A stretch of 53,170 nt of DNA, from positions 1-53,170 of the IMG/VR virus record IMGVR_UViG_3300020454_000018. The stretch is one strand, 5' to 3'. This DNA comes from a virus. The stretch's first letter is position 1. Each line of letters opens with the position of its first letter. The translations under genes and the position numbers were made by a program. Positions 640-31,636 of the stretch are shown here, in pieces. The notes beneath the pieces were generated by a model. It ran no database searches. It was not told the DNA's origin and was given only the letters and a program-made list of their open reading frames with translations.

Positions 640-834
640 ATGGGTATAAAACTAAAACCAAGTACTAAAGAATATAAGAGGGATTCTAATGGAAGAATGA
701 CTAATAAGTGGATATGGAAGCATTACACTGTTAGTGGCGCTAAAACAGAAGAACTCTTAAAATTATATAAAACGACCCCTAAGAAGAAAAATGTAATTAA
801 AAGAGAGTTGGAACGAAGGGGAGTAGAGTTTTAG
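640..834 (+). CDS. small basic protein, 64 aa
   Basis: Lysine- and arginine-rich protein with no membrane segment. The C-terminal part (LLKLYKTTPKKKNVIKRELERRGVEF) resembles a short module found in small proteins of marine T4-like phages, in which a basic patch is followed by a helix ending ELxRRG; this comes from memory of the family, not from a search. The function is unknown. Its 3' end overlaps the convergent minus-strand gene by 38 bases, so the two transcripts would be antisense at their ends. Confidence 0.55.
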   Translation: MGIKLKPSTKEYKRDSNGRMTNKWIWKHYTVSGAKTEELLKLYKTTPKKKNVIKRELERRGVEF

Positions 835-1510
835 TATTATCAATTCTTTCTAAAAATTCATTAGCTATATAACGATAACCTTCTTCATTGGGATGACCAT
901 CTCTTTTAGATATAGTTAAATCCTTATTCTTTAAATGGTTTGCCCAACCTACCTTACCACCTTTAGAAGATTTAGTCCACAAATCACTATATTGTATCTG
1001 AGGAGATGTACTTACATTATCATTCTCATCAGTATTAATATCATCAAACCCCAATTGAGATAAATTCCATAAGATAACATCCTTTGTTCTTTTAGATAAA
1101 TCATTACATAAATCGATTATTGCATTAATATAAGGGTCATCCTTTACTATAGTTGGCAAGTAGTATGTATTATACCACTCACGAACAATATCAATTTTTA
1201 TTTCTCTAAATCTGTTAGTGTCTCTTTCAACACCAACATCTCTATCTCTAAACCAAACCATATCAGAATCCGGCCCCAAATTCATTCTACCCTGTCCACT
1301 TAAATTTAAAATAACAATATCATCTTTTGTTATATCACCAAAATGTCTGATTAACTGATGTAGTATGTTTTCATTAGTACTTCCAACCTTAGCGCCCATT
1401 ACTATCTCACACTCCAATACTAACTTTAATTGATTAGACCAATGTGAGTTCCTAAATTGTGGTGTACCATATGGTTCAGAGAAAGAATCACCAAATACAA
1501 ATATTTTCAT
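797..1510 (-). CDS. SGNH/GDSL hydrolase-like protein (copy 1)
   Basis: SGNH hydrolases are Ser-His esterases or acyl-transfer enzymes, often acting on acylated carbohydrates. Block I is FGDSF (Ser at residue 9). Block II is near VGSTNENI and block III near VILNLSGQGRM. Block V is DGHPNEEGY close to the C-terminus, supplying the Asp-x-His pair. The 237-aa length is normal for the fold. There is no signal peptide, so it would act in the cytoplasm or as part of a virion. It lies directly downstream of a second SGNH-like gene, with a 4-base overlap. The substrate is unknown; deacetylation of a glycan is plausible. Confidence 0.7.
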   Translation of the reverse strand: MKIFVFGDSFSEPYGTPQFRNSHWSNQLKLVLECEIVMGAKVGSTNENILHQLIRHFGDITKDDIVILNLSGQGRMNLGPDSDMVWFRDRDVGVERDTNRFREIKIDIVREWYNTYYLPTIVKDDPYINAIIDLCNDLSKRTKDVILWNLSQLGFDDINTDENDNVSTSPQIQYSDLWTKSSKGGKVGWANHLKNKDLTISKRDGHPNEEGYRYIANEFLERIDNTKTLLPFVPTLF

Positions 1511-2403
1511 ATTAAATCCTTTTCGTATTTAACCTTTAAGTTTTTAGCGTTTTCTAATATTGTTTTTTTGATATCATCCTTATCTAAGATATCGTATTCT
1601 AATAATTTACCGACCTCTCCATATTCATTCAATCTTTCAGCTACATACAATCCAATAGTTTGATTAGCATGCATTCCGAAATGACCATCCGCAAAGTGCC
1701 CAGCCGTTTCATCTGTTATTGTTTCACCAGCTGATTCAAAAATTCCTTTATAATCCTTATCGCCTAAAAACCTATGTATCCATTTTCTTAATTCAGGTCT
1801 AGCTATAAGCATTGTTTCATCGGCTACAATATACCAATTAAGATTAGCAGCATCACAATAACAAAAAAACATTTTTAACTTTCGTATCATAGTTTGAAGA
1901 TGAACATCTGCATCGATAGTTTCCATTATAAGAGTTTCAAACATAGGTAAATGTTTGTCAATCCACTCAGAACCTAAATGTATTTGATTATAATAATTAA
2001 ACCCCATACCAAAACCCTCTCTTGTGGGTGAATGATTGTTCCAATCCATTTTATAATTTAAAACTCCCCACTCACCTATCTCTTTAGAATAGAACTCATC
2101 TCTACCTAAAGCAGATAGTTCGAATAGAAATAGATTTTCTGAAGGTTTAAACTCATCTGATTCCACAACCTTATAAACTTCCCTAAAGATTCTATCATTA
2201 CCATGTCCACTTTTTGCGTGATTAATTACTTTGGGTGTTACTTTTTTTTGTAGAAAGGAAGGCCAACTGAATTCAAACATTGAATTATCAACCATTGGTC
2301 TGAGTTTATTATAAAGAATCTTTATTCTTTTATTAACCCAATAATGAAATCCACCACCTTCGGTGTAAGATGTACCAAATGTACGAATATATTTGTAACT
2401 CAT
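1507..2403 (-). CDS. SGNH-like protein (copy 2)
   Basis: Divergent member of the same fold. The nucleophile motif is GTSYTEG rather than GDS. HAKSGHGNDRIFRE fits block II, LFLFELSALGRDEF block III, and the C-terminal HFADGHFGMHANQ block V with an Asp-Gly-His catalytic pair. At 298 aa it is longer than copy 1, with extra sequence in the middle. It is the first gene of a two-gene minus-strand unit. Its start codon lies immediately after TATAAATA read on the minus strand, so the transcript leader may be very short. Confidence 0.62.
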   Translation of the reverse strand: MSYKYIRTFGTSYTEGGGFHYWVNKRIKILYNKLRPMVDNSMFEFSWPSFLQKKVTPKVINHAKSGHGNDRIFREVYKVVESDEFKPSENLFLFELSALGRDEFYSKEIGEWGVLNYKMDWNNHSPTREGFGMGFNYYNQIHLGSEWIDKHLPMFETLIMETIDADVHLQTMIRKLKMFFCYCDAANLNWYIVADETMLIARPELRKWIHRFLGDKDYKGIFESAGETITDETAGHFADGHFGMHANQTIGLYVAERLNEYGEVGKLLEYDILDKDDIKKTILENAKNLKVKYEKDLI

Positions 2404-2429
2404 ATTTATAGTTAGTTATAACATTTTTA

Positions 2430-2441
2430 TATTTATAAATA
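2430..2441 (+). promoter_or_regulatory. late-promoter-like motif TATTTATA/TATAAATA
   Basis: TATTTATA (2430-2437) overlaps TATAAATA (2434-2441), the classical T4 late promoter box, 17-21 bases before the next gene. A weak AAAGGA Shine-Dalgarno sits between. The divergent intergenic gap carries a further TATTTATA at 2403-2410, next to the minus-strand start. Confidence 0.5.
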
Positions 2442-2458
2442 TCGAAAGGAAATAAATT

Positions 2459-2719
2459 ATGGCACACGAAATATTAAAGCTAGATGGTACAGTTGATTTT
2501 ACTTGGACTGATACAGAATATTCAGCTTCTCAACACTCAGGTTCAGCTGGTGGAATTGATGAAGTAGGTAGAACTACATTACCTAATGGTGATTTAGTTT
2601 GGATGTATGCATTTACATCTTCAGCAAGTAGCGCAAGTTTGATGTCTCAATTAGAAACTGAAAATAGTGGTACAGATGCACCACACATCAGAATAGCGAA
2701 CTGGTCTGGATTAAGTTAA
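2459..2719 (+). CDS. small Ser/Thr-rich protein, possible virion protein
   Basis: An 86-aa soluble protein rich in Ser, Thr, Gly and Asp (for example SASQHSGSAGG and FTSSASSASLMSQ), without a membrane segment or signal peptide. It has one of the few purine-rich ribosome sites in the region and a T4-late-like box upstream, which suggests late expression and perhaps a structural or decoration role. No family is recognised. The next gene starts one base after its stop. Confidence 0.6.
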   Translation: MAHEILKLDGTVDFTWTDTEYSASQHSGSAGGIDEVGRTTLPNGDLVWMYAFTSSASSASLMSQLETENSGTDAPHIRIANWSGLS

Positions 2720-2720
2720 A

Positions 2721-3470
2721 TTGCGAATACTCATATTGGGTACGGCTCGTTCTGGCACCACATCACTATTACTAGCTTTAGGGAAAGATAATATCAGGTG
2801 GAGAATAAACGAACCATTTTTAATTCGTGATGAGCAAGCTACTCATAGGATACAATCAAACAAAGTAAAGGTGAATGAAAGACCAATGGATTATCCGTTG
2901 GAAGAACTTTCCGCAACCGATACTTGTTGTGTCAAATCCATTGTAGGTCAAATACCCCTAATCTTTGAGTACAAAAGAATTTCAAAATTAGAACAACACA
3001 AAAACTTCATAAGTGACTTTTCAACATACTTTGATAAGATTATCCTATTAGATAGAAGAAATACAGAGGAACACTGGTTTAGTATGCTAAACCTACTTAG
3101 ACTAAACCATATAAATCCTAATAACTTTAATCCACACCTCAGCAAATATGGTGATAATTGGAATAACTTTACACCATTTAAAAAGTGGTACAAAGAAGAT
3201 ATACCTGAAGGATTTGATTTAGAAATGAGAAATGCAGGAGAATATGATTTATTTATTGAATCCAAAGAACTTTTAAAACAAACCTCTGAGTTATTAAACC
3301 TACCTATCTTTTATTATGAGGATTTATATTCTACTAATAAGAACACTCAAACAAAAAGCTTAGAAACACTATGTTTATATTTAGATAATATCATAGAGCT
3401 AAACACAATTAAAAAAAAACTATCCCCAACCAAACGATTACTTCAATCAGGTAGTAAACCTTTACTATAA
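2721..3470 (+). CDS. sulfotransferase-like P-loop protein
   Basis: The N-terminus reads ILGTARSGTTSLLLALG. The loop RSGTTSL (about residues 10-16) matches the 5'-phosphosulfate-binding loop of PAPS-dependent sulfotransferases. The 249-aa length fits small phage members. The only usable start in the open stretch is TTG, one base after the previous stop, so it is probably translationally coupled. The 3'-phosphate-binding region is not clear to me. It would transfer sulfate to a carbohydrate or another hydroxyl acceptor; a different P-loop kinase-like function remains possible. Confidence 0.6.
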   Translation: MRILILGTARSGTTSLLLALGKDNIRWRINEPFLIRDEQATHRIQSNKVKVNERPMDYPLEELSATDTCCVKSIVGQIPLIFEYKRISKLEQHKNFISDFSTYFDKIILLDRRNTEEHWFSMLNLLRLNHINPNNFNPHLSKYGDNWNNFTPFKKWYKEDIPEGFDLEMRNAGEYDLFIESKELLKQTSELLNLPIFYYEDLYSTNKNTQTKSLETLCLYLDNIIELNTIKKKLSPTKRLLQSGSKPLL

Positions 3471-3488
3471 AAATAATAAAGAAATACC

Positions 3489-3529
3489 TTGGAATTCTCA
3501 TTTTTTTTTCGTATATTTACTATGTAAAT
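3489..3529 (+). promoter_or_regulatory. Bacteroidota-type promoter with palindromic operator
   Basis: TTGG (3489-3492), 19 bases, then TATATTTAC (3512-3520), matching the -33/-7 layout of Bacteroidota. ATTTAC-TAT-GTAAAT (3515-3529) is a perfect inverted repeat over the -7 box and start region. It drives the small gene that follows and probably tRNA-Cys. Confidence 0.75.
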
Positions 3530-3549
3530 AACTAATAACACTTAAAAGT

Positions 3550-3759
3550 ATGAAAGTAAAAATAAACGATAAAATAACTTGGAAAGATAAATATGGTAGA
3601 ATACTACCAGGAATAGTAACAAGTATTGGTAAATATGATGCTATGCCTGATCTTGATTTAAATGGATGTATTGGTATAAGTGCTCCTACATTCCTACCAA
3701 TCAGTAAAGATTGGAATAACGCAATAATTGACCCTTTCCAAATATTAACAATTGGGTAG
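3550..3759 (+). CDS. small hypothetical protein, 69 aa
   Basis: Soluble protein beginning MKVKINDKITWKDKYGRILPG, a beta-rich pattern similar in look to small SH3-like or Tudor-like folds (VKINDKITWK...GIVTSIGKYD). No family can be named. It follows a clear promoter at about 30 bases. Its TAG stop lies inside the acceptor stem of the downstream tRNA-Cys, so the two overlap by 6 bases and must be separated by RNA processing. Confidence 0.65.
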   Translation: MKVKINDKITWKDKYGRILPGIVTSIGKYDAMPDLDLNGCIGISAPTFLPISKDWNNAIIDPFQILTIG

Positions 3760-3824: not shown

Positions 3825-3918
3825 CATATTTATTATTAAAGTTAATATTATATTGTACTTTTAGCTCTTAAATAGAGATATGGTATTTTATATTTAAGTT
3901 AATTATATTATAAAGATT

Positions 3919-4623
3919 ATGTATTCAAATGTTATTTGTATAGGAGATTCATATACAAACGAAGTTGAGCAGCTTTCTCAATTTGATTCTGAATTTAAAA
4001 AGGTTGGATATGAATTTAAATCATACCCACAACTATTAGGTGAGCATTATAAATGTAAGTGGGAAACCTTCGGAGAACCTGGTATGCCAATGGTTTTTAC
4101 ACTACAAACATTAATTGATAAAATTCCTTACATATTATCATTAGAAAATCCTTTGGTAATATATCAATTTGGATTTTTTTCAAATATGATTTTACATATA
4201 GAAGATAACAAATGGATAAATTGGAAATCACTACTATCAGAAAACTTCTTAAAACAACAATTCCAATCATATTCTAAGTATGGAGTCATATCAGGACATG
4301 GAAATGAGTTACCAAATATTGAAGATAAAACACTTTTATTAGATTATACACAAAAATTTGGGGAACAAACAAATTATTTTATTATACAATACTTTTGTAC
4401 CATAACAGATATTCTACATAAATTAGGAAAATCAAATATCTATGGTATGTTTTTAGCAACACCTCAGTTTAAATTACCAAAGCACGATAGATTATTACCA
4501 CATTTTGGGGATTGGTCTGAACCAACCATAAAAGATTTATTTCCTCAGATAGATGATACCCATAAAAGTACAGAAGCAAATCAAAAACTATGCGATTGGA
4601 TTGTTAATAAAATACAAAAATAA
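3919..4623 (+). CDS. SGNH/GDSL hydrolase-like protein (copy 3)
   Basis: 234 aa. Block I is CIGDSYTNE near the N-terminus; a Gly-containing block II lies near FGEPGMPMVF. The C-terminal IDDTHKSTEANQKL fits the Asp-x-x-His block V. There is no signal peptide. It stands alone after an AT-rich 95-base gap and before another palindromic promoter. It belongs to the same dispersed family as five other genes here; the substrate is unknown. Confidence 0.62.
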   Translation: MYSNVICIGDSYTNEVEQLSQFDSEFKKVGYEFKSYPQLLGEHYKCKWETFGEPGMPMVFTLQTLIDKIPYILSLENPLVIYQFGFFSNMILHIEDNKWINWKSLLSENFLKQQFQSYSKYGVISGHGNELPNIEDKTLLLDYTQKFGEQTNYFIIQYFCTITDILHKLGKSNIYGMFLATPQFKLPKHDRLLPHFGDWSEPTIKDLFPQIDDTHKSTEANQKLCDWIVNKIQK

Positions 4624-4635
4624 TTACAATTTTCC

Positions 4636-7078: not shown

Positions 7079-7828
7079 ATGAAAAGATTATTTACCTTTG
7101 GTTGTTCACACACTAAACATTTCTGGCCTACTTGGGCACATATTCTATCATTAGGATGTGATGAGTTCTATAATTTCGGTAAACCTGGCACTGGAAACTT
7201 TAGGATTCTTAACCAAATAATGAGAGCTAACCAACACTTTAAATTTACAAAGGATGATTATGTGGCTATCGCTCTTAGTTGTAACCATCGATATGATATC
7301 ATTGAAGATATAGCTGCTCCAGAACCATCTTGGATTTCATTGGGAAGTATGTTAGATGATAAGTACCACACTAAAGATTTTCAACACTACCTTAATGATT
7401 TAGGTGGAAACGAAAACACAATTACTATACTCAATTGTATTAAACAAATTTTAAACAATACCGATAATGTAAACTATAAAATCTTTTCCGCATTTGAAAT
7501 AAAAGATTCCGATGAGATTCAGTACCATTTAGATTCTAAAGTAACATTAGGTGGTATTAGTGAATCATATGGGAACAGAGGAACATACTACATAAAATCA
7601 TCTGAAAATGCTATCGGTATACCTGATGGACACTACACTATACCAATTCACTTACGATTAGTAAAGGATGTATTTAGTGATTGGTATGATGATAAATATG
7701 ATAAAATAGTGTGGAAGTGGGAAGAAACAATGCCTGATATGCATGGTAAAATAGAACAAGTATTTGGTTGGGTTAACGATTCTCAATATGAATTTATTGG
7801 AAACGAATTAATAAAGTTAAATAAATGA
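7079..7828 (+). CDS. SGNH-like protein (copy 4)
   Basis: 249 aa. Block I is FTFGCSHTKHFW, with GCS replacing GDS but Ser retained. NFGKPGTGNFRILNQI fits block II, with its Gly and Asn, and YVAIALSCNHRYD is the block III position. PDGHYTIPIH (about residue 183) offers an Asp-Gly-His. The catalytic triad is therefore possible but less certain than in copies 1 and 3. It overlaps the ASCH-domain gene by 4 bases. Confidence 0.55.
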   Translation: MKRLFTFGCSHTKHFWPTWAHILSLGCDEFYNFGKPGTGNFRILNQIMRANQHFKFTKDDYVAIALSCNHRYDIIEDIAAPEPSWISLGSMLDDKYHTKDFQHYLNDLGGNENTITILNCIKQILNNTDNVNYKIFSAFEIKDSDEIQYHLDSKVTLGGISESYGNRGTYYIKSSENAIGIPDGHYTIPIHLRLVKDVFSDWYDDKYDKIVWKWEETMPDMHGKIEQVFGWVNDSQYEFIGNELIKLNK

Positions 7829-12197: not shown

Positions 12198-13010
12198 GTG
12201 AAAAAATTTAAAAGGTTATATACAAATGGAAGTAGTATTACTCACGGCTGGCCTTTATGTCATAGTAGATACTTTGATATCTACAAAAGATTTTATGATG
12301 TTGAAGCTTGGGAAGTGAAGGGTGATGAAGAATCATTAGATAGTAGAATATCAATCAATTGGCCAAATCGTTTAGCAAATATATTAAATGTAGAGTTGAT
12401 TGATGAGAGTAGAGGTGGGGGTTCTTCATTAAGAGCTATGCGAATGTGTATGGAATATATAAATAAAAATTTAGACACTATAGATGATACTTTATTTATA
12501 ATTGAAACAACCTCTGGATATAGAGATGAATTATATTCAAATAGATTAGATAGATTATTCAATGTTGTAACCTCAAACTGTATAGACCCCAAAGATTGTA
12601 CCGATGATATTAATGATAGGGCAAAAATCAAAGATGAACTGGAAAGCTATTTTAAATATTTTGTAAATGATAAACATCATTATAACAAAGAAGCAAACTA
12701 TTTTATTGGATTCTTTTCATTATTAAAACAATTAGGATGTGAATTCTTTATTGTAAATCAAGCTATCAGAGGATATGCTGAGAACTACTATAATAAAATA
12801 TATGAAAGATTAGATATTGATGATAGAGTTTTAAAGTGGGATGGTGGTGATTGTATAGTACATTGGTATTGGAAAGAAAAGAAATATCACATTGGAGGAG
12901 AGTTAGAAAAACACATAGGTGATACAGATTATCATCCTGGCTACTTTGGACATATAAAAATAGCTGAACACATACACAACGAATTAAAAAAATACTATGG
13001 AAAAGTTTAA
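12198..13010 (+). CDS. SGNH-like protein (copy 5)
   Basis: 270 aa with a GTG start. Block I is LYTNGSSITHGW (GSS, Ser kept). SRGGGSSLRAMRM is a Gly-rich block II, LFIIETTSGYRDE lies at block III, and DYHPGYFGHIKIAEHI is a very good block V with Asp-x-His-Pro. Of the divergent copies it has the clearest C-terminal motif. No signal peptide. It overlaps a four-helix membrane protein by 14 bases, which may place its substrate at the membrane. Confidence 0.65.
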   Translation: MKKFKRLYTNGSSITHGWPLCHSRYFDIYKRFYDVEAWEVKGDEESLDSRISINWPNRLANILNVELIDESRGGGSSLRAMRMCMEYINKNLDTIDDTLFIIETTSGYRDELYSNRLDRLFNVVTSNCIDPKDCTDDINDRAKIKDELESYFKYFVNDKHHYNKEANYFIGFFSLLKQLGCEFFIVNQAIRGYAENYYNKIYERLDIDDRVLKWDGGDCIVHWYWKEKKYHIGGELEKHIGDTDYHPGYFGHIKIAEHIHNELKKYYGKV

Positions 13011-14129: not shown

Positions 14130-16460
14130 ATGAAGGGCACTTTTTTTTCAGCAGACTTTCTTGTAGATGAAAGTAACAATCTAAGATTGATGGAGATGAA
14201 TACAGATACGGCCTGTATTACAGATACATTAGATACTTACTTTGATTTAACCGAGTTTATAAACTTATTACAATCAAACAATATTACTACGATTCATGCA
14301 ATCTACAAAAACATACACCTCAACTTTATAGATTGGTTAGAAAATAAAATTAGTACAGATGCTACTTTTATAACAAGCTTCGAAAAAACACAAGAAGCGC
14401 AAGATACTATTTATCCAACTGCTATAGCAGATGCTGATGATAAATTTATTTTAAGATTAGCATATGATGAAAACGCATTATTCGATTCTACATATTGTAA
14501 AATCAGAACTAATGTATTAAGTTTGTTTCAAGAAAATAATGATAAAGATTCTGTACCAGAATTCTTTTTAAGTGGAAGTACGGGAGTTATTAATGAAATG
14601 ACAAGCTCGTTAAATGATAATAATAGATTTCCTGATTTAGTAAGAAAAAAAGTAGCTGATGGTAGTGGATTATCTATTGACTTTATTAAGTTCGATAACT
14701 TAGATGTATCATCATCAAACCAAGTTTGGAGTGATTATATTGCTAGTGAGTTAGATACTTCTGTAGATTATGTTGAAAAGTATCACATATCACCTAACTG
14801 GGATTCTCAAAATAGAGTAGATTCCATAAGACAGTTTGGAATAGTATATGGAAGTAATATTGATTATATAAAATTTGGAAGTTATAAAATCCAAAGTGTT
14901 ATAGAAATGCCAAATGCATTAAGTGGTAGTTCAACCAACAATGTAATTGAAATTGGTAAACAACATTACTTTGAATATACAACTAACTTTATGAGACATA
15001 ATAAGTTGGATGGTATTCTTAGTTCTGAAAAAATTCAAAATATAGATAACTCATTCGCAGAACTACCATCTCTTAGTGTAAACGATGATGTAAAATCATT
15101 CTTTATAAGTGGTTCTCCTGATACTGATGATGTAAACATATTTCACAGTTGGTCAAATGATGGGGTTGATTTCCCAATAGGTTCTGAAGTTACATCATCT
15201 ATTATAGAAGCAATGCAATCTTCTTCATTAGATTATTTTAACATAATAGAAAAAACTTTACCAAACGGAGAAACAATTTATTGTGGTATCAATAAGGTTT
15301 TCTTAATATATGAGTCATCTTCAAATCAGATGATGTTTAGAAGAGCAAATCAAATAACAGCATCAGACCATTATTTTGTTGACCACAGTGGTTCACTAAC
15401 ATCCGTATCTCAATCAGCTTATGTTGTATTAGATTCATCAGACTATTCACTCTTTAGAATTGATGTTGAAACAACGGATACATACTTTGTTAGCGCATCA
15501 AAGCCAGTTATCGTTCACAACGCACCATGCTTTGTTGCTGGTACAATGATTCACACCGAAGATGGTAAAAAGAAAATAGAAGATGTGATAGTTGGTGATA
15601 AAGTAGTAACATACAATCACGATAATGACTCTGCAGAATGGAAAGATGTGTTGGAAGTTATGAGAAAAGATAATGAATATGTTGTTACTTATGTATTTGA
15701 AAATGGAACAAAACTTACTGCTACACCTGACCATCCACTATTTGTAGTAGGAAAGGGATACTCTTCTTATCAACCTATCCAAACAAAAGATGATAGTGGT
15801 TTAGATGTAGAGCAAGTATTGTTAGGTGATGAGGTATTACATATAGATGGATATGGTGTAACCATTGAGGATATAATAGAAGAGGAAGAAAAAGAAACAG
15901 TATATAATCTAAAAAAAGTTGCAGATAATCATAACTTCTACGCAAACGACTTTTTAGCACACAACAGATTTGTACCACCATGTTGTTTTGCAGCTGGTAC
16001 ACAAATCCTATTATCAAATGGTGATACTAAAAATATTGAAGATATAGTTGAGGGAGATGAAGTAATGGGATGGAATGGTGAAATATTAGAAGCTTCATTG
16101 GTAACCGCAACTAACAACAAACATACAGTTGATTCACACTGGGAAGCATGTAAAAAATTAGGTGATGAACCATCATTATATACAATCAATGATACGGGAA
16201 TAGAGTTCACACCAGAACACCCATTCCTTACAAAAGAAGGATGGAAATCATTAGTACCTGATTTATCACAAGAACCATATAAATCAGAATCACCAGCAAA
16301 AGAACTTAAAGTTGGAGACTCTATTAATGTTAATGGATTGTGGGAAGAGATAGCAGAAATAAAAATAGTAAGGTCAAATCCTGATGAAGTAGTTTACAAC
16401 ATTAGTGTTGATAAGATACATTCATATATAGCAAACGGAATAATAGTACATAACAAATAA
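14130..16460 (+). CDS. large protein with tandem C-terminal Hint (intein-like) domains
   Basis: 776 aa. The N-terminus (FFSADFLVDESNNLRLMEMN then TDTA) recalls the EINTDTA stretch of ATP-grasp-like or virion proteins of marine T4-like phages. Two Hint domains occupy the C-terminus. Hint 1 runs from Cys467 (CFVAGTMIHTEDG) through TPDHPLF to His611-Asn612. Hint 2 runs from Cys619 (CFAAGTQILLSNG) through TPEHPFL to His774-Asn775, followed by one Lys and the stop. Neither is followed by Cys, Ser or Thr, so self-cleavage is more likely than splicing. A third, degenerate Hint end (PVIVHN, Asn464) precedes Hint 1. No homing endonuclease is inserted. Probably a processed virion protein. Confidence 0.75.
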   Translation: MKGTFFSADFLVDESNNLRLMEMNTDTACITDTLDTYFDLTEFINLLQSNNITTIHAIYKNIHLNFIDWLENKISTDATFITSFEKTQEAQDTIYPTAIADADDKFILRLAYDENALFDSTYCKIRTNVLSLFQENNDKDSVPEFFLSGSTGVINEMTSSLNDNNRFPDLVRKKVADGSGLSIDFIKFDNLDVSSSNQVWSDYIASELDTSVDYVEKYHISPNWDSQNRVDSIRQFGIVYGSNIDYIKFGSYKIQSVIEMPNALSGSSTNNVIEIGKQHYFEYTTNFMRHNKLDGILSSEKIQNIDNSFAELPSLSVNDDVKSFFISGSPDTDDVNIFHSWSNDGVDFPIGSEVTSSIIEAMQSSSLDYFNIIEKTLPNGETIYCGINKVFLIYESSSNQMMFRRANQITASDHYFVDHSGSLTSVSQSAYVVLDSSDYSLFRIDVETTDTYFVSASKPVIVHNAPCFVAGTMIHTEDGKKKIEDVIVGDKVVTYNHDNDSAEWKDVLEVMRKDNEYVVTYVFENGTKLTATPDHPLFVVGKGYSSYQPIQTKDDSGLDVEQVLLGDEVLHIDGYGVTIEDIIEEEEKETVYNLKKVADNHNFYANDFLAHNRFVPPCCFAAGTQILLSNGDTKNIEDIVEGDEVMGWNGEILEASLVTATNNKHTVDSHWEACKKLGDEPSLYTINDTGIEFTPEHPFLTKEGWKSLVPDLSQEPYKSESPAKELKVGDSINVNGLWEEIAEIKIVRSNPDEVVYNISVDKIHSYIANGIIVHNK

Positions 16461-21744: not shown

Positions 21745-22838
21745 TGAAATTCAGAACATTCTTATTAGGATTATCGGCATTGTTCGTTGCTTTCAACGCT
21801 GCCTTTTTTTCTGTAAGTGGTTTATCTAAACTATTTGCTGGAGCATCGTTATCTGTTATACTAATGGCTAGTTCTTTAGAGTTAGCAAAACTAATTACTG
21901 CTGGTTATCTTTACAATTATTGGGAAAAGATAAATAAAGTATTTAGATGGTATTTAACTTTTGGTGTTGTTATATTAGTATTAATTACATCACTTGGTAT
22001 CTACGGATTCCTAACATCAGCATTTCAAGACACCTTTAATCAATTCTCAGCAAATGAAAAACAAAAAGCATTCTTACAACAAAAAGAAAAGTTCTACGCT
22101 GATGATGTTGCAAGATACGATGAGGAACTTAAAAGAATATCTAATAACATCTCTACTCTTTCCAATGCTAAATCTCAACAAATCGAAGTACGAGACACCT
22201 CGGTGGTTGGGGGCGTTAGACGAACCATCTCTACTTCCGAACTTAGGATTTCACAAAAGCGTATTGAAGTTGAAGAAGAGAATCGTAAAAGTGTTCAGTC
22301 AAAAAGAGAAGTAGCAGCAGACTCACTACAATCTATTCAGCTAAAAGTTTTAGATTTAGATACAAACTTGGAGGGGGCATCAGAACTTGGCCCACTACAA
22401 TATCTAAGTGGATTGACTGGATATGGTATGGATAGGATAATCAACTGGTTAATCTTAATCATTATATTTGTTTTTGACCCATTAGCAGTAGCGCTTGTAG
22501 TTGCTTTTAACAATGCTTTACAAGTTGATAGGGGTATTGTAGATAAACAGAAAGTAATTCGTAGGAGAGAGTTATATGATGAAGTACCTGAAGAAGAAGA
22601 TATTGATGAAATCGATGTAAAAGATGAAGAAGAAGTTTTACCACCCGAGGCAAGAGGATTCGAACCACCTAAAAAAGAACTTGAACTAACAAAAGCAGAT
22701 ATTCGACTATATACACATCCTAATTTTAATTGGGAAGATAGAAGGACGTGGCAGAACGACCCCAAAGCAGTTCACTATTGGATAAAAAATATAAAAGATA
22801 AAAGATATCCTGATGATTTCGAAACAAAAACCTATTGA
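21744..22838 (+). CDS. coiled-coil membrane protein, 364 aa
   Basis: N-terminal helices span about residues 4-28 (FLLGLSALFVAFNAAFF), 32-55 and 72-95 (LTFGVVILVLITSLGIYGFL). A long charged coiled coil follows (about 105-215), then another membrane segment (about 226-250, IINWLILIIIFVFDPLAVAL) and an acidic tail (DEVPEEEDIDEIDVKDEEEV). Such topology occurs in phage inner-membrane proteins of unknown role. It overlaps the radical SAM gene by 26 bases. Confidence 0.6.
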   Translation: MKFRTFLLGLSALFVAFNAAFFSVSGLSKLFAGASLSVILMASSLELAKLITAGYLYNYWEKINKVFRWYLTFGVVILVLITSLGIYGFLTSAFQDTFNQFSANEKQKAFLQQKEKFYADDVARYDEELKRISNNISTLSNAKSQQIEVRDTSVVGGVRRTISTSELRISQKRIEVEEENRKSVQSKREVAADSLQSIQLKVLDLDTNLEGASELGPLQYLSGLTGYGMDRIINWLILIIIFVFDPLAVALVVAFNNALQVDRGIVDKQKVIRRRELYDEVPEEEDIDEIDVKDEEEVLPPEARGFEPPKKELELTKADIRLYTHPNFNWEDRRTWQNDPKAVHYWIKNIKDKRYPDDFETKTY

Positions 22839-23649
22839 TGATTTTGTTTTTATTGAAATAGAAATATTTTCATACTGTAATCGAAAATGTTGGTTTTGTC
22901 CAAACTCTTTTGTAGATAGGCGGGGTGAGAACCTAATTATGCCTGAAAAAAAATATCTTAGTATTCTTCAACAACTAAAAGATATGAACTTTAAAGGTGA
23001 GATAGCTTATAGTAGATATAATGAACCATTATCTCATAAAGATATTTTTATAAAAAGGTTAGAACAAGCAAGAGAATATCTACCCAACGCAAAGTTAAGA
23101 ACCAACTCAAATGGTGATTATGTTACAAAAGAATACATAATAGATTTACATAAAGCAGGATTGAATGAATTATTCATACAACAATATTTAAAAAATAATG
23201 AAATCTATAATCACACCAGAGTAAAAAAAGAAATTAAAAGAAAATTAGATAAAGTAGGATTACCATATAAGTTATTATATGATTACAAAGATAGAAAAAT
23301 TGAATATGATTTATCTTACAAAGATATGGTTGTACATATCCGAGGTAGAAACTTTACCTTTGATGGGAGTAGTAGAGGAGAGACTGTACCACTTGCAGTT
23401 GATTATGTAAGAACAGAACGATGCTTAAAACCATTTACTTCGATGTATATCGATTATAATGGTAGCGTTATGATTTGTTGTAATCTTCGTTCAGATATTA
23501 AACAGCATGATATTGGATATATGGGTAATGCATTCGAAACACCAATTAAAGAAATTTGGAATGGTGATAGGTATCTAAGCTGGAGAAATCATCATCAGTT
23601 TAATGGGCCAAAAGAAGGTGCATGTAGAAGTTGTAAAATAGGTTTATGA
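22813..23649 (+). CDS. radical SAM / SPASM enzyme
   Basis: Cys22-x3-Cys26-x2-Cys29 (YCNRKCWFC) is the 4Fe-4S radical SAM site, and FKGEIAYSRYNEPL fits the following GGEP-like strand. The C-terminus carries auxiliary-cluster cysteines: CLKPFTSMYIDYNGSVMICC and CRSCKIGL, the SPASM/twitch pattern. 278 aa. SPASM enzymes modify peptides or sugars (for example aminoglycoside epimerases or dehydratases). It overlaps a glycosyltransferase-like gene by 4 bases, which favours a sugar-linked role, but a peptide substrate cannot be excluded. Confidence 0.82.
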   Translation: MISKQKPIDDFVFIEIEIFSYCNRKCWFCPNSFVDRRGENLIMPEKKYLSILQQLKDMNFKGEIAYSRYNEPLSHKDIFIKRLEQAREYLPNAKLRTNSNGDYVTKEYIIDLHKAGLNELFIQQYLKNNEIYNHTRVKKEIKRKLDKVGLPYKLLYDYKDRKIEYDLSYKDMVVHIRGRNFTFDGSSRGETVPLAVDYVRTERCLKPFTSMYIDYNGSVMICCNLRSDIKQHDIGYMGNAFETPIKEIWNGDRYLSWRNHHQFNGPKEGACRSCKIGL

Positions 23650-24859: not shown

Positions 24860-25810
24860 ATGAATTTAGGATACGCATGTATTAATATGACCTTATCAGG
24901 TCAAAAGCCAAAAGTAACTACAAATCGTAGTATGATTAAGAAAACCTTTAAAGAAAAAGGTTTATCATATGCTGGTGAGTTAGGAATGTTAAACGCAGCC
25001 GATTTAAGTAAGATACTTAGATGGAATGTAGAAAACAATATTAAATGTTTTAGATTATCTTCAGAGTTCTTTCCGTGGGCATCAGAATATAAGTTTAAAG
25101 ATTTACCACAATACTTACGAATCAAAACATTATTAGCTGGTGCAGGTAACTACGCTAAACAAAATGGATTACGATTAACTTCACATCCAGGTCCGTTCAA
25201 TGTATTGGTATCACCACACAAGCATGTGGTTGATAATACAATTACTGATTTAAGAATACATGGAGAAGTATTCGATATGTTAGGATTAGAGCGTTCACCA
25301 TACAACAAAATAAATATACATTGTAATGGTGTATATGGAGATAAACAATCTGCTATGGATAGATTCTGTAAAAACTTTGAGTTACTACCAGAATCAGTTA
25401 AGACTCGTTTGACTGTAGAGAATGATGATAAGGCATCAATGTACTCAGTAAAAGATTTAATGTATATACATAAAAGAATTGGTATTCCTATTGTATTTGA
25501 TTATCACCACCACAAATTTTGTACAGGTGATTTATCAGAGCAAGAAGCTTTGGAGTTGGCTTTATCAACTTGGCCTAAAGGTATTACACCAATAGTACAT
25601 TACTCAGAATCTAAAATGTTACACGAAGGTAACGAAAAACTAAAACCACAAGCTCACTCAGATTATATCAATGATTTACCAGATACATATGGTAATGATG
25701 TTGATATTATGGTAGAAGCAAAAGCAAAAGAATTATCTATATTACCATTTGTTAATTCAAATAAATGTGAGTATAGTGGTTTATTAAGTACATCAAGTTA
25801 TGCAAGCTAA
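24860..25810 (+). CDS. uvsE: UV-damage endonuclease (UvdE/UvsE)
   Basis: The TIM-barrel signature is clear: LGYACINM at the start, FRLSSEFFPW, LTSHPGPFNVL, KINIHCNGVYGDK, RLTVENDD, IPIVFDYHHHKFC and ITPIVHYSES supply the metal-binding His, Asp and Glu residues. 316 aa is full length. It nicks DNA 5' of UV photoproducts, a repair activity useful in sunlit water. It is the first gene after its own palindromic promoter. Confidence 0.92.
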   Translation: MNLGYACINMTLSGQKPKVTTNRSMIKKTFKEKGLSYAGELGMLNAADLSKILRWNVENNIKCFRLSSEFFPWASEYKFKDLPQYLRIKTLLAGAGNYAKQNGLRLTSHPGPFNVLVSPHKHVVDNTITDLRIHGEVFDMLGLERSPYNKINIHCNGVYGDKQSAMDRFCKNFELLPESVKTRLTVENDDKASMYSVKDLMYIHKRIGIPIVFDYHHHKFCTGDLSEQEALELALSTWPKGITPIVHYSESKMLHEGNEKLKPQAHSDYINDLPDTYGNDVDIMVEAKAKELSILPFVNSNKCEYSGLLSTSSYAS

Positions 25811-26152: not shown

Positions 26153-27025
26153 ATGTATAGGTATCAAAAACTTCTATATAATAGTGATTGTATTTTAGAT
26201 ACAAAATCAAATACTGTCTTTTTTGAAGGTGATGACGGTTGGGATACATATCAACAATGGATAAAAGATTACCCTATTTTAGAAGAAGATATTAAAGCAC
26301 AAAAAGTACAACTACTAAGATGGAATCAAGGTAGACCCATATATTTAGATGATACAAAATATCATTATCATAGAAATGGTATATTATTTAAAACAGAAAC
26401 AGATAACATTTATTGTGAATATGATAACGATGGGTTTTTGATAAAAAAAGAAACCACAACAGATAATGGAAAAGAAATAGAAGAGTATGTTGTTGTAAAT
26501 AAAAAATCACTTCTCAGTAAACGGATAACACCATCAGAAATAATTCATTATCAAGCAACTCCACATCAAGCTATATATAAAAAGTATAAGCAAAATGGAT
26601 TTAATATAGAAGAGTATTTAAGTAATAACAAAATTTACAAAAGTAGTTTTACAAAAAACTCAATCAGAGTAGAAAAGCAATTTGCTAATGGATATACTAC
26701 TGAAGCAAAAACATATGTTGATGATATACTTGTTAAAGAAAAGTTTTATTTTTCTGGTACAAGTACAATATCAAAGAAAAATCACAAACTAAGAACAGAA
26801 GATGCTGCAGGTTATTATTATACAGAATATTACCCTACTACGAATTGTAGAGCTGAAGGACTTTTAACCGAAAATGATAAACCAACTGGAGTATGGAAAT
26901 TTTATCATGTCAATGGTGAAGTAGAATCTGAGCATTTTTTTAATGATGGTAGATTTGAACAATATAGTAGGTCATCCGTATATTATGAGGATGGTACTTT
27001 AAACTTTAACATTAAGCATGATTAG
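26153..27025 (+). CDS. MORN-variant repeat protein, 290 aa
   Basis: Repeating short beta units of the type YHRNGILFKTET, YDNDGFLIKKET and KPTGVWKFYHVNGEVESEHF, then YEDGTLNFNIK, match the MORN-variant (YwqK-like) repeat. No signal peptide. Such repeats bind partners or act as scaffolds. It overlaps the GT2-like gene by 8 bases, so it may serve the glycosyltransferases. Confidence 0.6.
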   Translation: MYRYQKLLYNSDCILDTKSNTVFFEGDDGWDTYQQWIKDYPILEEDIKAQKVQLLRWNQGRPIYLDDTKYHYHRNGILFKTETDNIYCEYDNDGFLIKKETTTDNGKEIEEYVVVNKKSLLSKRITPSEIIHYQATPHQAIYKKYKQNGFNIEEYLSNNKIYKSSFTKNSIRVEKQFANGYTTEAKTYVDDILVKEKFYFSGTSTISKKNHKLRTEDAAGYYYTEYYPTTNCRAEGLLTENDKPTGVWKFYHVNGEVESEHFFNDGRFEQYSRSSVYYEDGTLNFNIKHD

Positions 27026-27914
27026 TATTATTATTCCATTTGCCGTAAAAAACGAAGAAGATATAAATCTACACAATTGGCCAAATCAAGATTTAGGATT
27101 TAATATATACAATACAATACAATGTATAAAAAATATTAATAAACTTTTAGATTTTGATAAAGAAATAATATTGGTTGATAATACTAATAATTTTCCAAAA
27201 CTTAAATTACCAAATCTAAAAGTAATAAAAGGTTGGCAATATCTTACTGAAGATGAAATAAAATCAAAATCTGATTTTTCAAAATATAAAATAGATAATT
27301 TTAAAAACCAATCAATGTGGGCATCTATGGCTTACAATATAGGTTTGAAAGAAGCAAGGGGTGAGTATGTTATTTTACAGCATAATGATATACATTATCA
27401 TAACAACTTAATACCAAATATGATAAACCTTATGAAAAATGAAAGTTTAGAATATATTTCAGCTGATTTTAAAAAACTAACTATCTCTGGTTATTTGGGT
27501 AATAAAGAAGTAATGGATAACATCGAAAATGATATTGAAGTTAGTTATATAGATGGTGGTTATATTAAAACCAAAAAAATAGGATTTGCAGATTGTTACT
27601 TTTTTATTTCGAAAAAAGAATTCTTTAATGATTATTATGTTGATTGGGCATATGGAGATTCAAATCATGGGGCTACTATAAAGTGTTTAAAAAACAAAAA
27701 AGATTTTTTACACTTAAGTCCATTTTATGATAATCCAAACTTTGAAACCAAAAATAAACTAAGAACTTATTATTTTGATTCAAAAAAATTTATAACACAT
27801 TTAAAGGGTGGGTTTTCTCAAAACAAACTATCGTTTAAAAAAATACATAAAAATATTATGAGTGTTGTATATCAAGACGAAATTTACAAATATTTAAATT
27901 TAATAAATGATTGA
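27018..27914 (+). CDS. family 2-like (GT-A) glycosyltransferase
   Basis: MISIIIPFAVKNEED at the start, KEIILVDNTNN at strand 2, ASMAYNIGLKEARGEYVILQ and HNDIHYH at the metal-binding turn (an HND variant of DxD) match the GT2/GT-A nucleotide-sugar fold. The 298-aa size suits a single domain. It overlaps genes on both sides, forming a block with the MORN and GT25-like genes. Donor and acceptor are unknown. Confidence 0.68.
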   Translation: MISIIIPFAVKNEEDINLHNWPNQDLGFNIYNTIQCIKNINKLLDFDKEIILVDNTNNFPKLKLPNLKVIKGWQYLTEDEIKSKSDFSKYKIDNFKNQSMWASMAYNIGLKEARGEYVILQHNDIHYHNNLIPNMINLMKNESLEYISADFKKLTISGYLGNKEVMDNIENDIEVSYIDGGYIKTKKIGFADCYFFISKKEFFNDYYVDWAYGDSNHGATIKCLKNKKDFLHLSPFYDNPNFETKNKLRTYYFDSKKFITHLKGGFSQNKLSFKKIHKNIMSVVYQDEIYKYLNLIND

Positions 27915-28656
27915 AGCACACATCATAACTTTACCTAAATCAAAACACAGTATGAGTTTGGCTGATAGATGTATTACTAATCTCAAAGAAACTTTTGGTT
28001 TTGATAATCCAAACTGGAATGTTTCTTATTCATATGGCGTTGATAAGTATTCAGTTTGGCAAACATACATAGATTCTAATCTTAATTTAAATATTGATAC
28101 TTTTGGTGTAGGAAATTTAGAATCAGAAATAGCAACTTTTTTTTCTCACTTAAATTTATGGCAAAAATGCTTGGATAATTCAAAAAAATTTCTTATATTA
28201 GAGACTGATTCTGTATTTACAAAAGATGTAGATATAAATCAATTATTAAATTTTGATGGGGATTTATTAAATTTAGGATATCCTAATTGGGGTAGTTCTA
28301 TAAATGGAAAGCAAAATAATATAGATATAAAAATGGAATGGTTGGATAAACCAAATGGTATTTTAAAAAGAGAGTTTTGTGAAAATGAGCACGATAGACA
28401 CTCACCACACTTAGGAAGTTGTCATTGTGATACCGAATGGTTATTTGGAGCACATTGTTATTTACTAAACCCATCAGGAGCAAAAAAATTATTGGATAGT
28501 TTAAAAAAAGGAATAGAACCAGCTGATACATACATAAGTCAAAAAGTATTAAATATTTATGATTTACTACCACACCCAGCCAAACAACTAAATGATAATA
28601 GTTTTATCCAAAGACATTATAAACATAACGGAATTGATGACCAATGGGATTACTAA
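27907..28656 (+). CDS. family 25-like glycosyltransferase
   Basis: LESEIATFFSHLNLWQKCLD and KFLILETDSVF correspond to the SH..W..... and LEDD blocks of LPS-type family 25 glycosyltransferases; LFGAHCYLLNPSGAKKLL and ADTYISQKV are the later family blocks. 249 aa is normal. In the family these add galactose or other hexoses to LPS or collagen-like acceptors. The ETD variant keeps the acidic metal ligands. Confidence 0.7.
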   Translation: MIEAHIITLPKSKHSMSLADRCITNLKETFGFDNPNWNVSYSYGVDKYSVWQTYIDSNLNLNIDTFGVGNLESEIATFFSHLNLWQKCLDNSKKFLILETDSVFTKDVDINQLLNFDGDLLNLGYPNWGSSINGKQNNIDIKMEWLDKPNGILKREFCENEHDRHSPHLGSCHCDTEWLFGAHCYLLNPSGAKKLLDSLKKGIEPADTYISQKVLNIYDLLPHPAKQLNDNSFIQRHYKHNGIDDQWDY

Positions 28657-29120
28657 ATAACTTATATATTTTTGTCTATGCTGATGTTAAAAATAAATTA
28701 GCAACATATAGAATTAACGATTATGATGAATTTAATGATTATAGTAAAAACATTAGTCAATCTAGTATTAAACAATTAGTAAATGTAATTGATAATTCTA
28801 CATATGAAAAAATAGTTTTGGTATGTAGAAGTAAAGATGAACCATATACACAAGAGTTTCCAGCTCAATTATATTTGGATTATATCAAAAAAAATTCAAA
28901 GAAAAATATAAAAGTATTTTATCAAAACCCACTACCAGCTAATGTACCAAACTTTGAAGATGATTATATGATAATTAGATTTGGGTGGGATTCTGGATGT
29001 GAGTTTGATAACGCAGTTGGTGAGGATAAGTTATTTGATACTGAATTATCAGATGGTTCTTACACTTTACTTTATAATAAAAATAAATCCATAAACTTAA
29101 ATAAAAAATCAATTTTATGA
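28644..29120 (+). CDS. hypothetical protein, 158 aa
   Basis: Soluble protein with alternating strands and helices (LYIFVYADVKNKLATYRIND, YEKIVLVCRSKDEPY, KNIKVFYQNPLPAN), perhaps a Rossmann-like fold. It sits between the GT25-like gene and thymidylate synthase and overlaps both. No family is recognised. Confidence 0.5.
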   Translation: MGLLNNLYIFVYADVKNKLATYRINDYDEFNDYSKNISQSSIKQLVNVIDNSTYEKIVLVCRSKDEPYTQEFPAQLYLDYIKKNSKKNIKVFYQNPLPANVPNFEDDYMIIRFGWDSGCEFDNAVGEDKLFDTELSDGSYTLLYNKNKSINLNKKSIL

Positions 29121-30001
29121 ATGTAGTAGATAAACAATATCAAGGGTTTCTTAGAAAACTAATAATGTATGGAACTGAAAAAGATGATAGAACTGGTACA
29201 GGTACATTATCTTATTTTGGTGATACCTTTAGGCATGATATGAGTAAAGGGTTTCCACTTCTTACAACAAAGAAGATGGCAGTAAAATCAATGGTTACAG
29301 AACTTAAATGGTTTCTCAGAGGTGATTCTCACATTGGTTACTTATTAGAAAATGGATGTAACATATGGAATGGTGATGCATATAAGAAATATCAAAGAGT
29401 AGTTGATTGGGATTTAGATGAAGCACTATCAGAAGAAGAGTTCATTGATAAAGTTAAAAACGACAAAGATTATTGGCACTATGGATTGTTAGGTCCAATC
29501 TATGGAACACAATGGAGAAAATGGGGTAGTAAAACATATATTGACCAAATCAAAGAACTTATACAAAATCTAAAACATAATCCAAATAGTAGGAGACACA
29601 TAGTATCAGCTTGGAATGTTGAGGATTTAGAAAAAATGACTTTACCGCCTTGCCACTACTCATTCCAATGCTATGTAGTAGATAATAAATTATCACTAAT
29701 GTGGAATCAAAGAAGTGTAGATGTATTCTTAGGATTGCCATTTAACATAGCATCATATGGATTACTCTTATTACTATTATGTGAAGAGACCGGATATGAA
29801 CCGGGTGAACTGATTGGTTCGTTGGGTGATGTACATTTGTATAAAAACCACTTAGAGCAAGCACATGAACAAATAAGAAGAGAACCTAAAAAATTACCAA
29901 AAATTAAATTATCTAATATTCATATATTAGAGGGTGAGTTTGATTATGAGATTTTAGATTACGAATCACACCCTACAATTAAAGCACCATTAAGTAATTA
30001 A
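29117..30001 (+). CDS. thyA: thymidylate synthase
   Basis: Methylates dUMP to dTMP with methylenetetrahydrofolate. The catalytic Cys179 lies in LPPCHYSFQCYV. Asn210 in GLPFNIASYGLL specifies uracil (dCMP hydroxymethylases carry Asp there). DDRTGTGTLSYFG, LLGPIYGTQWR and RSVDVFLGLPF are present, and the end HPTIKAPLSN is family-like. 294 aa. With dCMP deaminase at 10.4 kb it completes a phage dCMP to dTMP route. A dUMP hydroxymethylase is possible but not favoured. Confidence 0.9.
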   Translation: MNVVDKQYQGFLRKLIMYGTEKDDRTGTGTLSYFGDTFRHDMSKGFPLLTTKKMAVKSMVTELKWFLRGDSHIGYLLENGCNIWNGDAYKKYQRVVDWDLDEALSEEEFIDKVKNDKDYWHYGLLGPIYGTQWRKWGSKTYIDQIKELIQNLKHNPNSRRHIVSAWNVEDLEKMTLPPCHYSFQCYVVDNKLSLMWNQRSVDVFLGLPFNIASYGLLLLLLCEETGYEPGELIGSLGDVHLYKNHLEQAHEQIRREPKKLPKIKLSNIHILEGEFDYEILDYESHPTIKAPLSN

Positions 30002-30003
30002 TT

Positions 30004-30387
30004 ATGAATTATCACGAAGATGACAGAGCACAAAGATTATTAGATATATTTCCTTTAGATAAAGGACAAGTAAATATATCTTATATAAATTCAACTGAAC
30101 ATATAGTTGCGTGGCACAAACACGAAAAACAAACTGACTACTGGATTTGCTTGAAAGGTAGTTTAAAAGTAGGATGGGCAACCGAAGATGATGGTTGTGA
30201 ATTCAAATACCTTTCAGATAAAAATCCACAAGTCTTAAAGATACCACCTGGTGTGTATCATGGTTATAAGGCATTAGAGCCGGGAACAATTTTAGCATAT
30301 TATGTAACACATAAATACGACCCATCAGATGAACACAGAAAATCTGTAGGAGCATTTGGTGAGGAGTGGAAAACAGAAAACAAATGA
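30004..30387 (+). CDS. RmlC-like cupin protein
   Basis: 127 aa. HIVAWHKHEKQTDYW, LKIPPGVYHGYKAL and the GTILAYYVTHKYD strand make a single cupin barrel, like the dTDP-4-dehydrorhamnose 3,5-epimerase/FdtA superfamily that isomerises nucleotide sugars. Position between thyA and a sugar-type nucleotidyltransferase supports a sugar role. A simple dioxygenase-like cupin is the alternative. Confidence 0.68.
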   Translation: MNYHEDDRAQRLLDIFPLDKGQVNISYINSTEHIVAWHKHEKQTDYWICLKGSLKVGWATEDDGCEFKYLSDKNPQVLKIPPGVYHGYKALEPGTILAYYVTHKYDPSDEHRKSVGAFGEEWKTENK

Positions 30388-30866
30388 GTAAAAAATATAA
30401 AGTAATTTTAATAAGCGGTGGATTTGACCCCGTACACAAAGGTCATATACAATGTATCCAAAACGCAAAAGAACTTGCAGATGAAGTTTGGATAGGTTTA
30501 AACAACGATAGTTGGTTAAGAAGAAAGAAAGGTAAATCATTTATGAAAGAGCAAGAGAGGGCATTTATAATGGATAATATCAAAGGTGTTAGTTGGGTTT
30601 ATATTATGAATCCAAAAATACACAATGATGAATCAGCTTGTGATTTTATCGATGCATCAAGACATAAATGGATGAGAGAGAAAGGTGGAGTTTGGGAAGA
30701 AGGAATTATGGCGTTTGGTAATGGTGGTGATAGAGTTGCTGGTGCAGTACCATCCGTAGAAGAAGATGTTTGTAAAGGATGGGGTATCGATTTAGTTTGG
30801 GGACTTGGTGATAAGGTTCAATCATCTTCTTGGTTATTAGAAAAATATAACAATTTAGCAGTATAG
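30384..30866 (+). CDS. RfaE/TagD-type nucleotidyltransferase
   Basis: I chose the ATG overlapping the previous stop (ATGA) over an upstream GTG. SGGFDPVHKGH gives His18 and His21 of the HxGH motif; GLNNDSWLRRKKGKSFM and QERAFIMDNIKGVSWVY match the heptose-1-phosphate adenylyltransferase and glycerol-3-phosphate cytidylyltransferase group. 160 aa is normal. It would activate a phosphorylated sugar or polyol for the glycosyltransferases nearby. Confidence 0.8.
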   Translation: MSKKYKVILISGGFDPVHKGHIQCIQNAKELADEVWIGLNNDSWLRRKKGKSFMKEQERAFIMDNIKGVSWVYIMNPKIHNDESACDFIDASRHKWMREKGGVWEEGIMAFGNGGDRVAGAVPSVEEDVCKGWGIDLVWGLGDKVQSSSWLLEKYNNLAV

Positions 30867-31636
30867 TGAAATTTTGGGCAATAGGTGATAGTTATGTAGA
30901 CCCACATGAATATCCAATTAGAGGTAAAAAGTGGGCATCTGTTATGATAAGAAGCTTAAAATCAGATAAATATTTTATATTTGGTAATGGTGGATTCGAT
31001 GCAGAAACTGTTTTAGATAATTTACTTTTAAATTTACATCTGTTAGAGGATGGTGATTTAGTTGTACTTTTTCTACCAACTTTATGGAGACATAGATTAC
31101 CATTGGCAGATAATATGATAGATAAATATTCTCAACTTATTGACCCACCAAAAACCAAAAACATTGAAAATGTACAAATACTAAATGGGTTTATGGTTAA
31201 TAATCATTTACATAATACACATCAATATCTTGCACCACCACTAAATAAAATGGATTTAGATAATTTAATGGATAAAGAAGAAAAGTTTATTGAGCGTTCA
31301 AAAAATTGGAATAAAAAGTTAGATTTTCATAAATTAGTAACATCTTTAAAACCAAACGCTCTTAGAATAGAATCTATTTTAAAATCAATAGTAAAATTAA
31401 AACCAAAAGTAAACTTTGAATTTTTTACTTGGTGTGAAAATGAATTTACAGATTTAGTAAAAGACTTACAATTTATAAAAAAAGAGCTTGGGTTTTATGA
31501 AACACAACATATGGCTTGGTTAAGTGGAAAAGATGGGATGGAGGGTGACCACCACTTCTCATCCGATATGAATGAAAGATTCGCTAGCTATCTAATAAAA
31601 AAATACCCAAACCAATTTGATAATAATCTTATATGA
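30866..31636 (+). CDS. SGNH/GDSL hydrolase-like protein (copy 6)
   Basis: 256 aa with a GTG start. Block I is WAIGDSYVDPHEYP. FGNGGFDAETVLDNL is block II (Gly, Asn) and LVVLFLPTLWRHRLP block III. GDHHFSSDMNERFASYL fits block V (Asp-His-His) close to the C-terminus. It overlaps the methyltransferase-like gene by 4 bases and sits in the sugar-gene operon, the strongest context evidence that this family acts on glycans. Confidence 0.66.
   Translation: MKFWAIGDSYVDPHEYPIRGKKWASVMIRSLKSDKYFIFGNGGFDAETVLDNLLLNLHLLEDGDLVVLFLPTLWRHRLPLADNMIDKYSQLIDPPKTKNIENVQILNGFMVNNHLHNTHQYLAPPLNKMDLDNLMDKEEKFIERSKNWNKKLDFHKLVTSLKPNALRIESILKSIVKLKPKVNFEFFTWCENEFTDLVKDLQFIKKELGFYETQHMAWLSGKDGMEGDHHFSSDMNERFASYLIKKYPNQFDNNLI

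What the first reader, a model, noticed from the sequence alone, without database searches (positions are those of the whole stretch)
797..31636. Six dispersed, divergent SGNH-hydrolase-like genes in one phage segment
Genes at 797-1510(-), 1507-2403(-), 3919-4623, 7079-7828, 12198-13010 and 30866-31636 all place a Gly-x-Ser (GDS, GTS, GDS, GCS, GSS, GDS) within the first 15 or so residues, and most show a later Gly/Asn block and a C-terminal Asp-x-His. They lie in several separate transcription units, not in tandem, and differ strongly in sequence, which suggests long retention and separate substrates. Such enzymes usually add or remove acyl groups on glycans. A single phage keeping six is unusual and may mark a glycan-editing or anti-receptor system.
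Basis: partly seen in the sequence, partly recalled or inferred. Interest (0 to 1): 0.78.

Follow-up and report, generated by a model that had tools for sequence, protein, structure and literature searches.

The report
Six related SGNH-like enzymes in phage
This fragment of an uncultured T4-like phage carries six very different copies of one esterase-like enzyme family; related phages carry up to about ten, often next to sugar-building genes, which suggests a phage toolkit for adding or removing small acyl groups on sugars, although no substrate has been shown.

Summary
All six genes exist as stated and carry block I (G-x-S), a block II Gly and a late D-x-H; shuffled proteins give 0.03 such genes, six are seen. 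A profile built only from other phages' proteins finds all six and nothing else in the window. A confident AlphaFold2 model of one (pLDDT 85) and a partial model of another match SGNH esterases in the PDB. Two refinements. The family is not canonical SGNH: the block III Asn (GxND) is replaced by Arg in 32 of 33 relatives, five of the six here. And six is not exceptional: a 288-kb relative has nine or ten, a 40-kb fragment seven, a 129-kb contig six, while other T4-like phages have none. The six are separate old lineages, not recent duplicates. They have no room for signal peptides, so they act in the cytoplasm or in virions. One lies in an operon with sugar-isomerase, cytidylyltransferase and methyltransferase genes near glycosyltransferases and a carbamoyltransferase; relatives cluster with epimerases, aminotransferases, sulfotransferases and radical-SAM enzymes. 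Glycan acyl editing is the best reading; substrate and direction are unproven, and 'anti-receptor' is untested.

The parts
797..1510 (-). SGNH-like P0001 (GDS S9, G43, R75, D204-x-H206)
   Evidence: Pfam Lipase_GDSL at its cut-off 23.6 bits; orthologue L161 in G047, 43% identical; found by window-free profile, 82 bits
1507..2403 (-). SGNH-like P0002 (GTS; D-G-H), overlapping P0001 head to tail in one unit
   Evidence: relatives L104, L150, L155; window-free profile 102 bits
3919..4623 (+). SGNH-like P0003 (GDS; block III position Asn instead of Arg; D-T-H); most divergent
   Evidence: window-free profile 22.7 bits, best unrelated ORF 10.8; hhalign 70.6%
7079..7828 (+). SGNH-like P0004 (GCS; R; P-D-G-H), overlaps next ORF by 4 bases
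   Evidence: hhalign 95.5%; relative L151, 33% identical; window-free profile 49.5 bits
12198..13010 (+). SGNH-like P0005 (GSS S13, G74, R109, D244-x-H246), GTG start
   Evidence: AlphaFold2 pLDDT 84.9, pTM 0.87; Foldseek: the 23 PDB matches at E<=0.001 are SGNH/GDSL-type enzymes
30866..31636 (+). SGNH-like P0006 (GDS S9, G43, R75, D228-x-H230), GTG start, overlaps genes on both sides
   Evidence: window-free profile 20.8 bits; partial model pLDDT 64.2, best PDB hits GDSL-type
27018..27914 (+). glycosyltransferase family 2
   Evidence: Pfam PF00535 2.7e-6
27907..28656 (+). glycosyltransferase family 25 (LPS type)
   Evidence: Pfam PF01755 9e-12
30004..30387 (+). dTDP-sugar isomerase / FdtA-like cupin
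   Evidence: Pfam PF00908, PF05523
30366..30866 (+). cytidylyltransferase, overlaps P0006 start
   Evidence: Pfam PF01467 4.1e-11
31633..32187 (+). methyltransferase-like, overlaps P0006 end
   Evidence: Pfam PF13489 3.5e-4, below cut-off
35185..36888 (+). NodU-type carbamoyltransferase
   Evidence: Pfam PF02543 4.8e-70, PF16861 8.6e-65

Best explanation
The six genes encode members of one phage family of SGNH-hydrolase-like serine enzymes whose block III Asn is replaced by Arg ('S-G-R-H'). Shown: fold (two modelled), conservation of Ser, block II Gly, Arg and Asp-x-His, common ancestry, old separate lineages, recurrence as sets of six to ten in related large T4-like phages. Inferred: a Ser-His-Asp triad takes an acyl group onto Ser, with the block II Gly and perhaps the Arg helping to hold the oxyanion or a charged substrate, and passes it to water (esterase) or to a sugar hydroxyl (acyltransferase). 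The proteins are not exported by a signal peptide and most likely trim or add acyl groups on sugars made by the phage-encoded glycan genes (nucleotide sugars, lipid-linked units or glycosylated phage parts) during infection, each paralogue with its own substrate. Likelihoods: SGNH-like fold in all six about 0.95; catalytically active in most about 0.8; sugar or glycan substrate about 0.6.
For: Motif test: 6 seen against 0.03 expected. A profile built without any window protein scores the six 20.8-102 bits; the best unrelated ORF of 2,877 scores 10.8 and the next window ORF 6.5. P0005 model pLDDT 84.9; PDB matches are TesA, carbohydrate esterase CE2 (2w9x), GDSL lipases and, lower, PatB; the P0006 model also matches GDSL esterases, rhamnogalacturonan acetylesterase and sialate O-acetylesterase. 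Family profile against PDB sequences: AlgX 1.9e-4, SGNH esterase 2.8e-4, GDSL-esterase 6.4e-4. Ser and His 33/33, Arg 32/33, block II Gly 29/33. Context: P0006 operon; relatives beside epimerases, a transketolase-like gene, a carbamoyltransferase and radical-SAM genes in L133, APS kinase, PfkB and DegT aminotransferase in G047, glycosyltransferases and epimerases, sulfotransferase. Serine at residues 9-13 leaves no room for a signal peptide.
Against: Not all members sit by glycan genes: the P0001 orthologue lies among tail genes and the P0004 relative after the capsid gene (those gene identities are by eye). The closest PDB fold is TesA, a thioesterase/lysophospholipase, so lipid or acyl-CoA substrates are open. 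Active-site geometry could not be measured. Support for P0003 and P0006 is weaker than for the other four. The link with glycan genes was not tested statistically.
Confidence: 0.55

Rival explanations
1. The enzymes are thioesterases or phospholipases acting on acyl-CoA, acyl carrier protein or membrane lipids, supplying or remodelling lipids during infection.
For: Nearly all of the first 14 Foldseek matches of P0005 are E. coli-type TesA structures.
Against: TesA is a small, standard SGNH template, so its high rank says little on substrate (inference); gene neighbourhoods are sugar genes, not lipid genes; six to ten divergent copies fit diverse sugar acceptors better.
Confidence: 0.2
2. They are virion or tail-associated deacetylases that open the host surface (anti-receptor or capsule-removing), like tailspike esterases.
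For: Some orthologues lie among late structural genes; SGNH domains occur in phage tail proteins (a weak phrog_300 tail-fibre match for one relative; gp59 tail-associated lysin at 0.022).
Against: All six are short stand-alone proteins without fibre domains; P0006 lies in a biosynthetic operon.
Confidence: 0.12
3. They modify non-glycan targets such as hypermodified phage DNA, tRNA or peptides, together with the radical-SAM, 2-oxoglutarate oxygenase and carbamoyltransferase genes.
For: Radical-SAM/SPASM, 2OG-Fe(II) oxygenases and a carbamoyltransferase are in the window; relatives sit beside several radical-SAM genes; one BFVD match is a radical-SAM protein.
Against: No base-modification enzyme was recognised in the window; sugar-nucleotide enzymes dominate the clusters.
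Confidence: 0.1

Closest known systems
SGNH/GDSL hydrolase superfamily (Pfam PF00657, PF13472)
   Same: Fold, nucleophile Ser after strand 1, block II Gly, block V Asp-x-His before the last helix
   Different: Block III GxND absent; Arg in 32 of 33 sequences
AlgX/AlgJ alginate O-acetyltransferases (PMC4148444)
   Same: No block III Asn; DxH with one spacer; top sequence match of the family profile, through a stretch ending in the same aromatic-Arg (EFSPLYR)
   Different: AlgX/AlgJ are circularly permuted, periplasmic and have Tyr in the oxyanion place (PMC4148444); the phage proteins are not permuted and have no signal peptide
OafA/OafB and PatB polysaccharide O-acetyltransferase SGNH domains (PMC7448272)
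   Same: Catalytic triad with atypical oxyanion hole; PatB among the fold matches
   Different: OafA/OafB domains are fused to membrane acyltransferases; no such partner seen here
DUF6071 (PF19547)
   Same: 7 of 29 family members match at E<=0.05; two sister-phage genes pass its cut-off
   Different: None of the six window proteins matches it at E<=1; no paper on it is in the library
SGNH_hydrolase proteins of 'uncultured Caudovirales phage' (UniProt/BFVD)
   Same: Best structural matches among viral proteins, several so named, similar size
   Different: No published analysis of the group, its Arg or its multiplicity was found

Membership tests
SGNH hydrolase superfamily (canonical) | Block I G-x-S nucleophile after strand 1 | tested here: met
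   33/33 including all six; strand 6-10 then S13 in the P0005 model
SGNH hydrolase superfamily (canonical) | Block II Gly | tested here: met
   all six; 29/33 overall
SGNH hydrolase superfamily (canonical) | Block III GxND with oxyanion Asn | tested here: not met
   Arg in five of six, Asn in P0003 but without GxND; therefore filed as SGNH-like, as the literature does for AlgJ/AlgX
SGNH hydrolase superfamily (canonical) | Block V Asp-x(-x)-His | tested here: met
   D-x-H in all six; His 33/33
SGNH hydrolase superfamily (canonical) | alpha/beta/alpha SGNH fold | tested here: met
   P0005 and, at lower confidence, P0006; the other four were not modelled
SGNH hydrolase superfamily (canonical) | Ser-His-Asp distances | not testable with these tools
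AlgX/AlgJ | Circularly permuted order His-Ser-Gly-Tyr | tested here: not met
   order is Ser-Gly-Arg-His
DUF6071 | Match to PF19547 over its cut-off | tested here: not met
   no window protein matches at E<=1
Glycan O-acyl esterase or transferase | Activity on an acylated sugar | not testable with these tools
   needs biochemistry

The most novel reading that the evidence does not exclude
A phage branch of SGNH-like enzymes in which a nearly invariant Arg takes the place of the oxyanion Asn has diversified into sets of six to ten specialised acyl-editing enzymes, so that large T4-like phages carry a combinatorial toolkit for re-decorating host or virion glycans during infection.
Probability: 0.35. 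Interest if true: 0.65.

Novelty: new variant of a known kind. Interest (0 to 1): 0.45.

Why it matters
Phage glycosyltransferase clusters are usually explained as surface remodelling or exclusion of competing phages, but acyl decoration by phages is little studied outside tailspikes and seroconverting prophages (own knowledge). A recurrent, fast-diverging SGNH-like family with a changed oxyanion residue gives a concrete, testable set of enzymes, and turns many 'uncharacterized' viral proteins into candidates with named catalytic residues.

Tried and rejected
tblastn of all six, and of three relatives, against 50,697 phage records found nothing. Single-sequence pattern scans of viral contigs found nothing; one alignment scan found six loci. 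Recent duplication inside this genome was rejected by the tree. Chance motif matches were rejected by shuffles. NCBIfam gave no family and PHROGs only weak scattered ones. Scores of P0003 and P0006 are circular (both are in that alignment) and were replaced by the leave-out test. The P0006 model used family rows, so it is not fully independent of the family assignment.

Full report
What the window is. The window is a whole IMG/VR record, a linear 53,170-base fragment of about 30% G+C. Its baseplate protein is up to 93% identical to that of short environmental contigs, 64% to that of two larger records, G018 and G047, and about 37-41% to that of cultured Flavobacterium and Microcystis phages. 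It is a T4-like phage; the host is unknown.

The observation. The six ORFs are intact. A motif test that asks for a hydrophobic stretch before G-x-S at the start and a D-x-H near the end finds these six and no other of 42 ORFs; shuffles give 0.028 on average. The simple G-x-S rule alone would be weak evidence (8 seen, 2.2 expected).

Common ancestry. P0002 and P0005 were linked through a relative in G018. Iteration and one alignment-based scan gave a family with an invariant G-x-S, a near-invariant Gly, an invariant Arg and an invariant His. To avoid circularity I built a profile from other phages' proteins only: it finds the six at 102, 93.8, 82, 49.5, 22.7 and 20.8 bits, against 10.8 for the best unrelated ORF among 2,877 and 6.5 for the next window ORF. 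So there are exactly six recognisable members in the window.

Fold. P0001 reaches the Pfam Lipase_GDSL cut-off, and the family profile's best PDB sequence matches are SGNH proteins. AlphaFold2 gives P0005 pLDDT 84.9 and pTM 0.87, and its 23 PDB matches at E<=0.001 are SGNH/GDSL-type enzymes. P0006 is modelled at pLDDT 64.2 with a good core and a poor middle; its best matches are again GDSL-type.

Active site. On 33 sequences Ser and His are invariant, the block II Gly is present in 29, and the place of the block III Asn holds Arg in 32; the exception is P0003, with Asn. All six window proteins have D-x-H, though some relatives lack the Asp. Loss of the canonical block III is known in the sugar O-acetyltransferases AlgJ/AlgX (PMC4148444) and OafA/OafB (PMC7448272). 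I therefore file the family as SGNH-like, not canonical SGNH.

Number of copies and history. With the family profile, 14 of 43 related records have members: nine matches in G047 (288 kb), seven in G049 (40 kb), six in G048 (129 kb), none in the Flavobacterium and Microcystis phages. One G047 gene is reported in two pieces, and one further G047 gene (L167:9174-10103) was recognised only by motif, so 'nine or ten' is the fair figure for G047. Six is therefore ordinary among the multi-copy members of this group. The tree puts P0001 and P0002 each with a G047 gene and P0004 with a G045 gene, and P0005 in a clade with G047, G048 and G049 genes, all with strong support; P0006 joins a G048/G047 clade; P0003 is unplaced; the six never form one clade in 200 bootstrap trees. 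P0001 and P0002, adjacent here, have their closest relatives 80 kb apart in G047, so the genes also move.

Context. P0006 overlaps a cytidylyltransferase and a methyltransferase-like gene, close to a dTDP-sugar-isomerase-like cupin, GT2, GT25 and a carbamoyltransferase. In L133 six members lie with sugar epimerase-like genes, a transketolase-like gene, a carbamoyltransferase and radical-SAM genes. In G047 neighbours are APS kinase, PfkB kinase, a DegT aminotransferase and glycosyltransferases. In G012 a sulfotransferase lies within 2 kb. Pelagimyophages carry LPS-related gene sets thought to change the host surface (PMC7029224). I did not run a statistical test of this association.

Mechanism and limits. 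The serine lies at residues 9-13, so no signal peptide is possible; the enzymes act in the cytoplasm or inside particles. The most likely reaction is transfer or removal of an acyl group on sugars. Substrate, direction and biological purpose are inferred. No homologue was found in cultured phages by tblastn, but that search is insensitive at this divergence, and structural matches show many uncharacterised viral relatives, several already named SGNH hydrolases. Hence 'new variant of a known kind'.

Noticed in passing
window 14130-16460 (+): 776-aa protein ending in two tandem Hint/intein-like domains (Hint_2, Intein_splicing, PT-HINT matches), with VHNK right before the stop.
   Followed up: partly
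window 47315-53170 (+): Open reading frame of at least 1,952 aa running off the end, with a proline/arginine-rich start; probably a very long tail protein.
   Followed up: no
L132:10001-11788: A 595-aa protein of contig G048 made of two different SGNH-like domains in tandem, the first of the P0005 type and the second nearer P0006.
   Followed up: partly
window 2721-3470 (+): P-loop protein (GTARSGTTSL) that looks like a sulfotransferase by eye, next to P0002; no Pfam or PDB match.
   Followed up: partly
window 22813-23649 and 24860-25810: Radical-SAM/SPASM protein and a UvdE UV-endonuclease in one phage segment.
   Followed up: no
L164:8514-9248 and L171:17177-17938: Relatives of P0001 and P0004 sit alone among what look like tail and capsid genes, so some members may be expressed late.
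   Followed up: partly
BFVD A0A6J5LTW5: A viral radical-SAM protein of 602 aa matches the SGNH-like model (E 2.5e-3), a possible radical-SAM/SGNH fusion.
   Followed up: no
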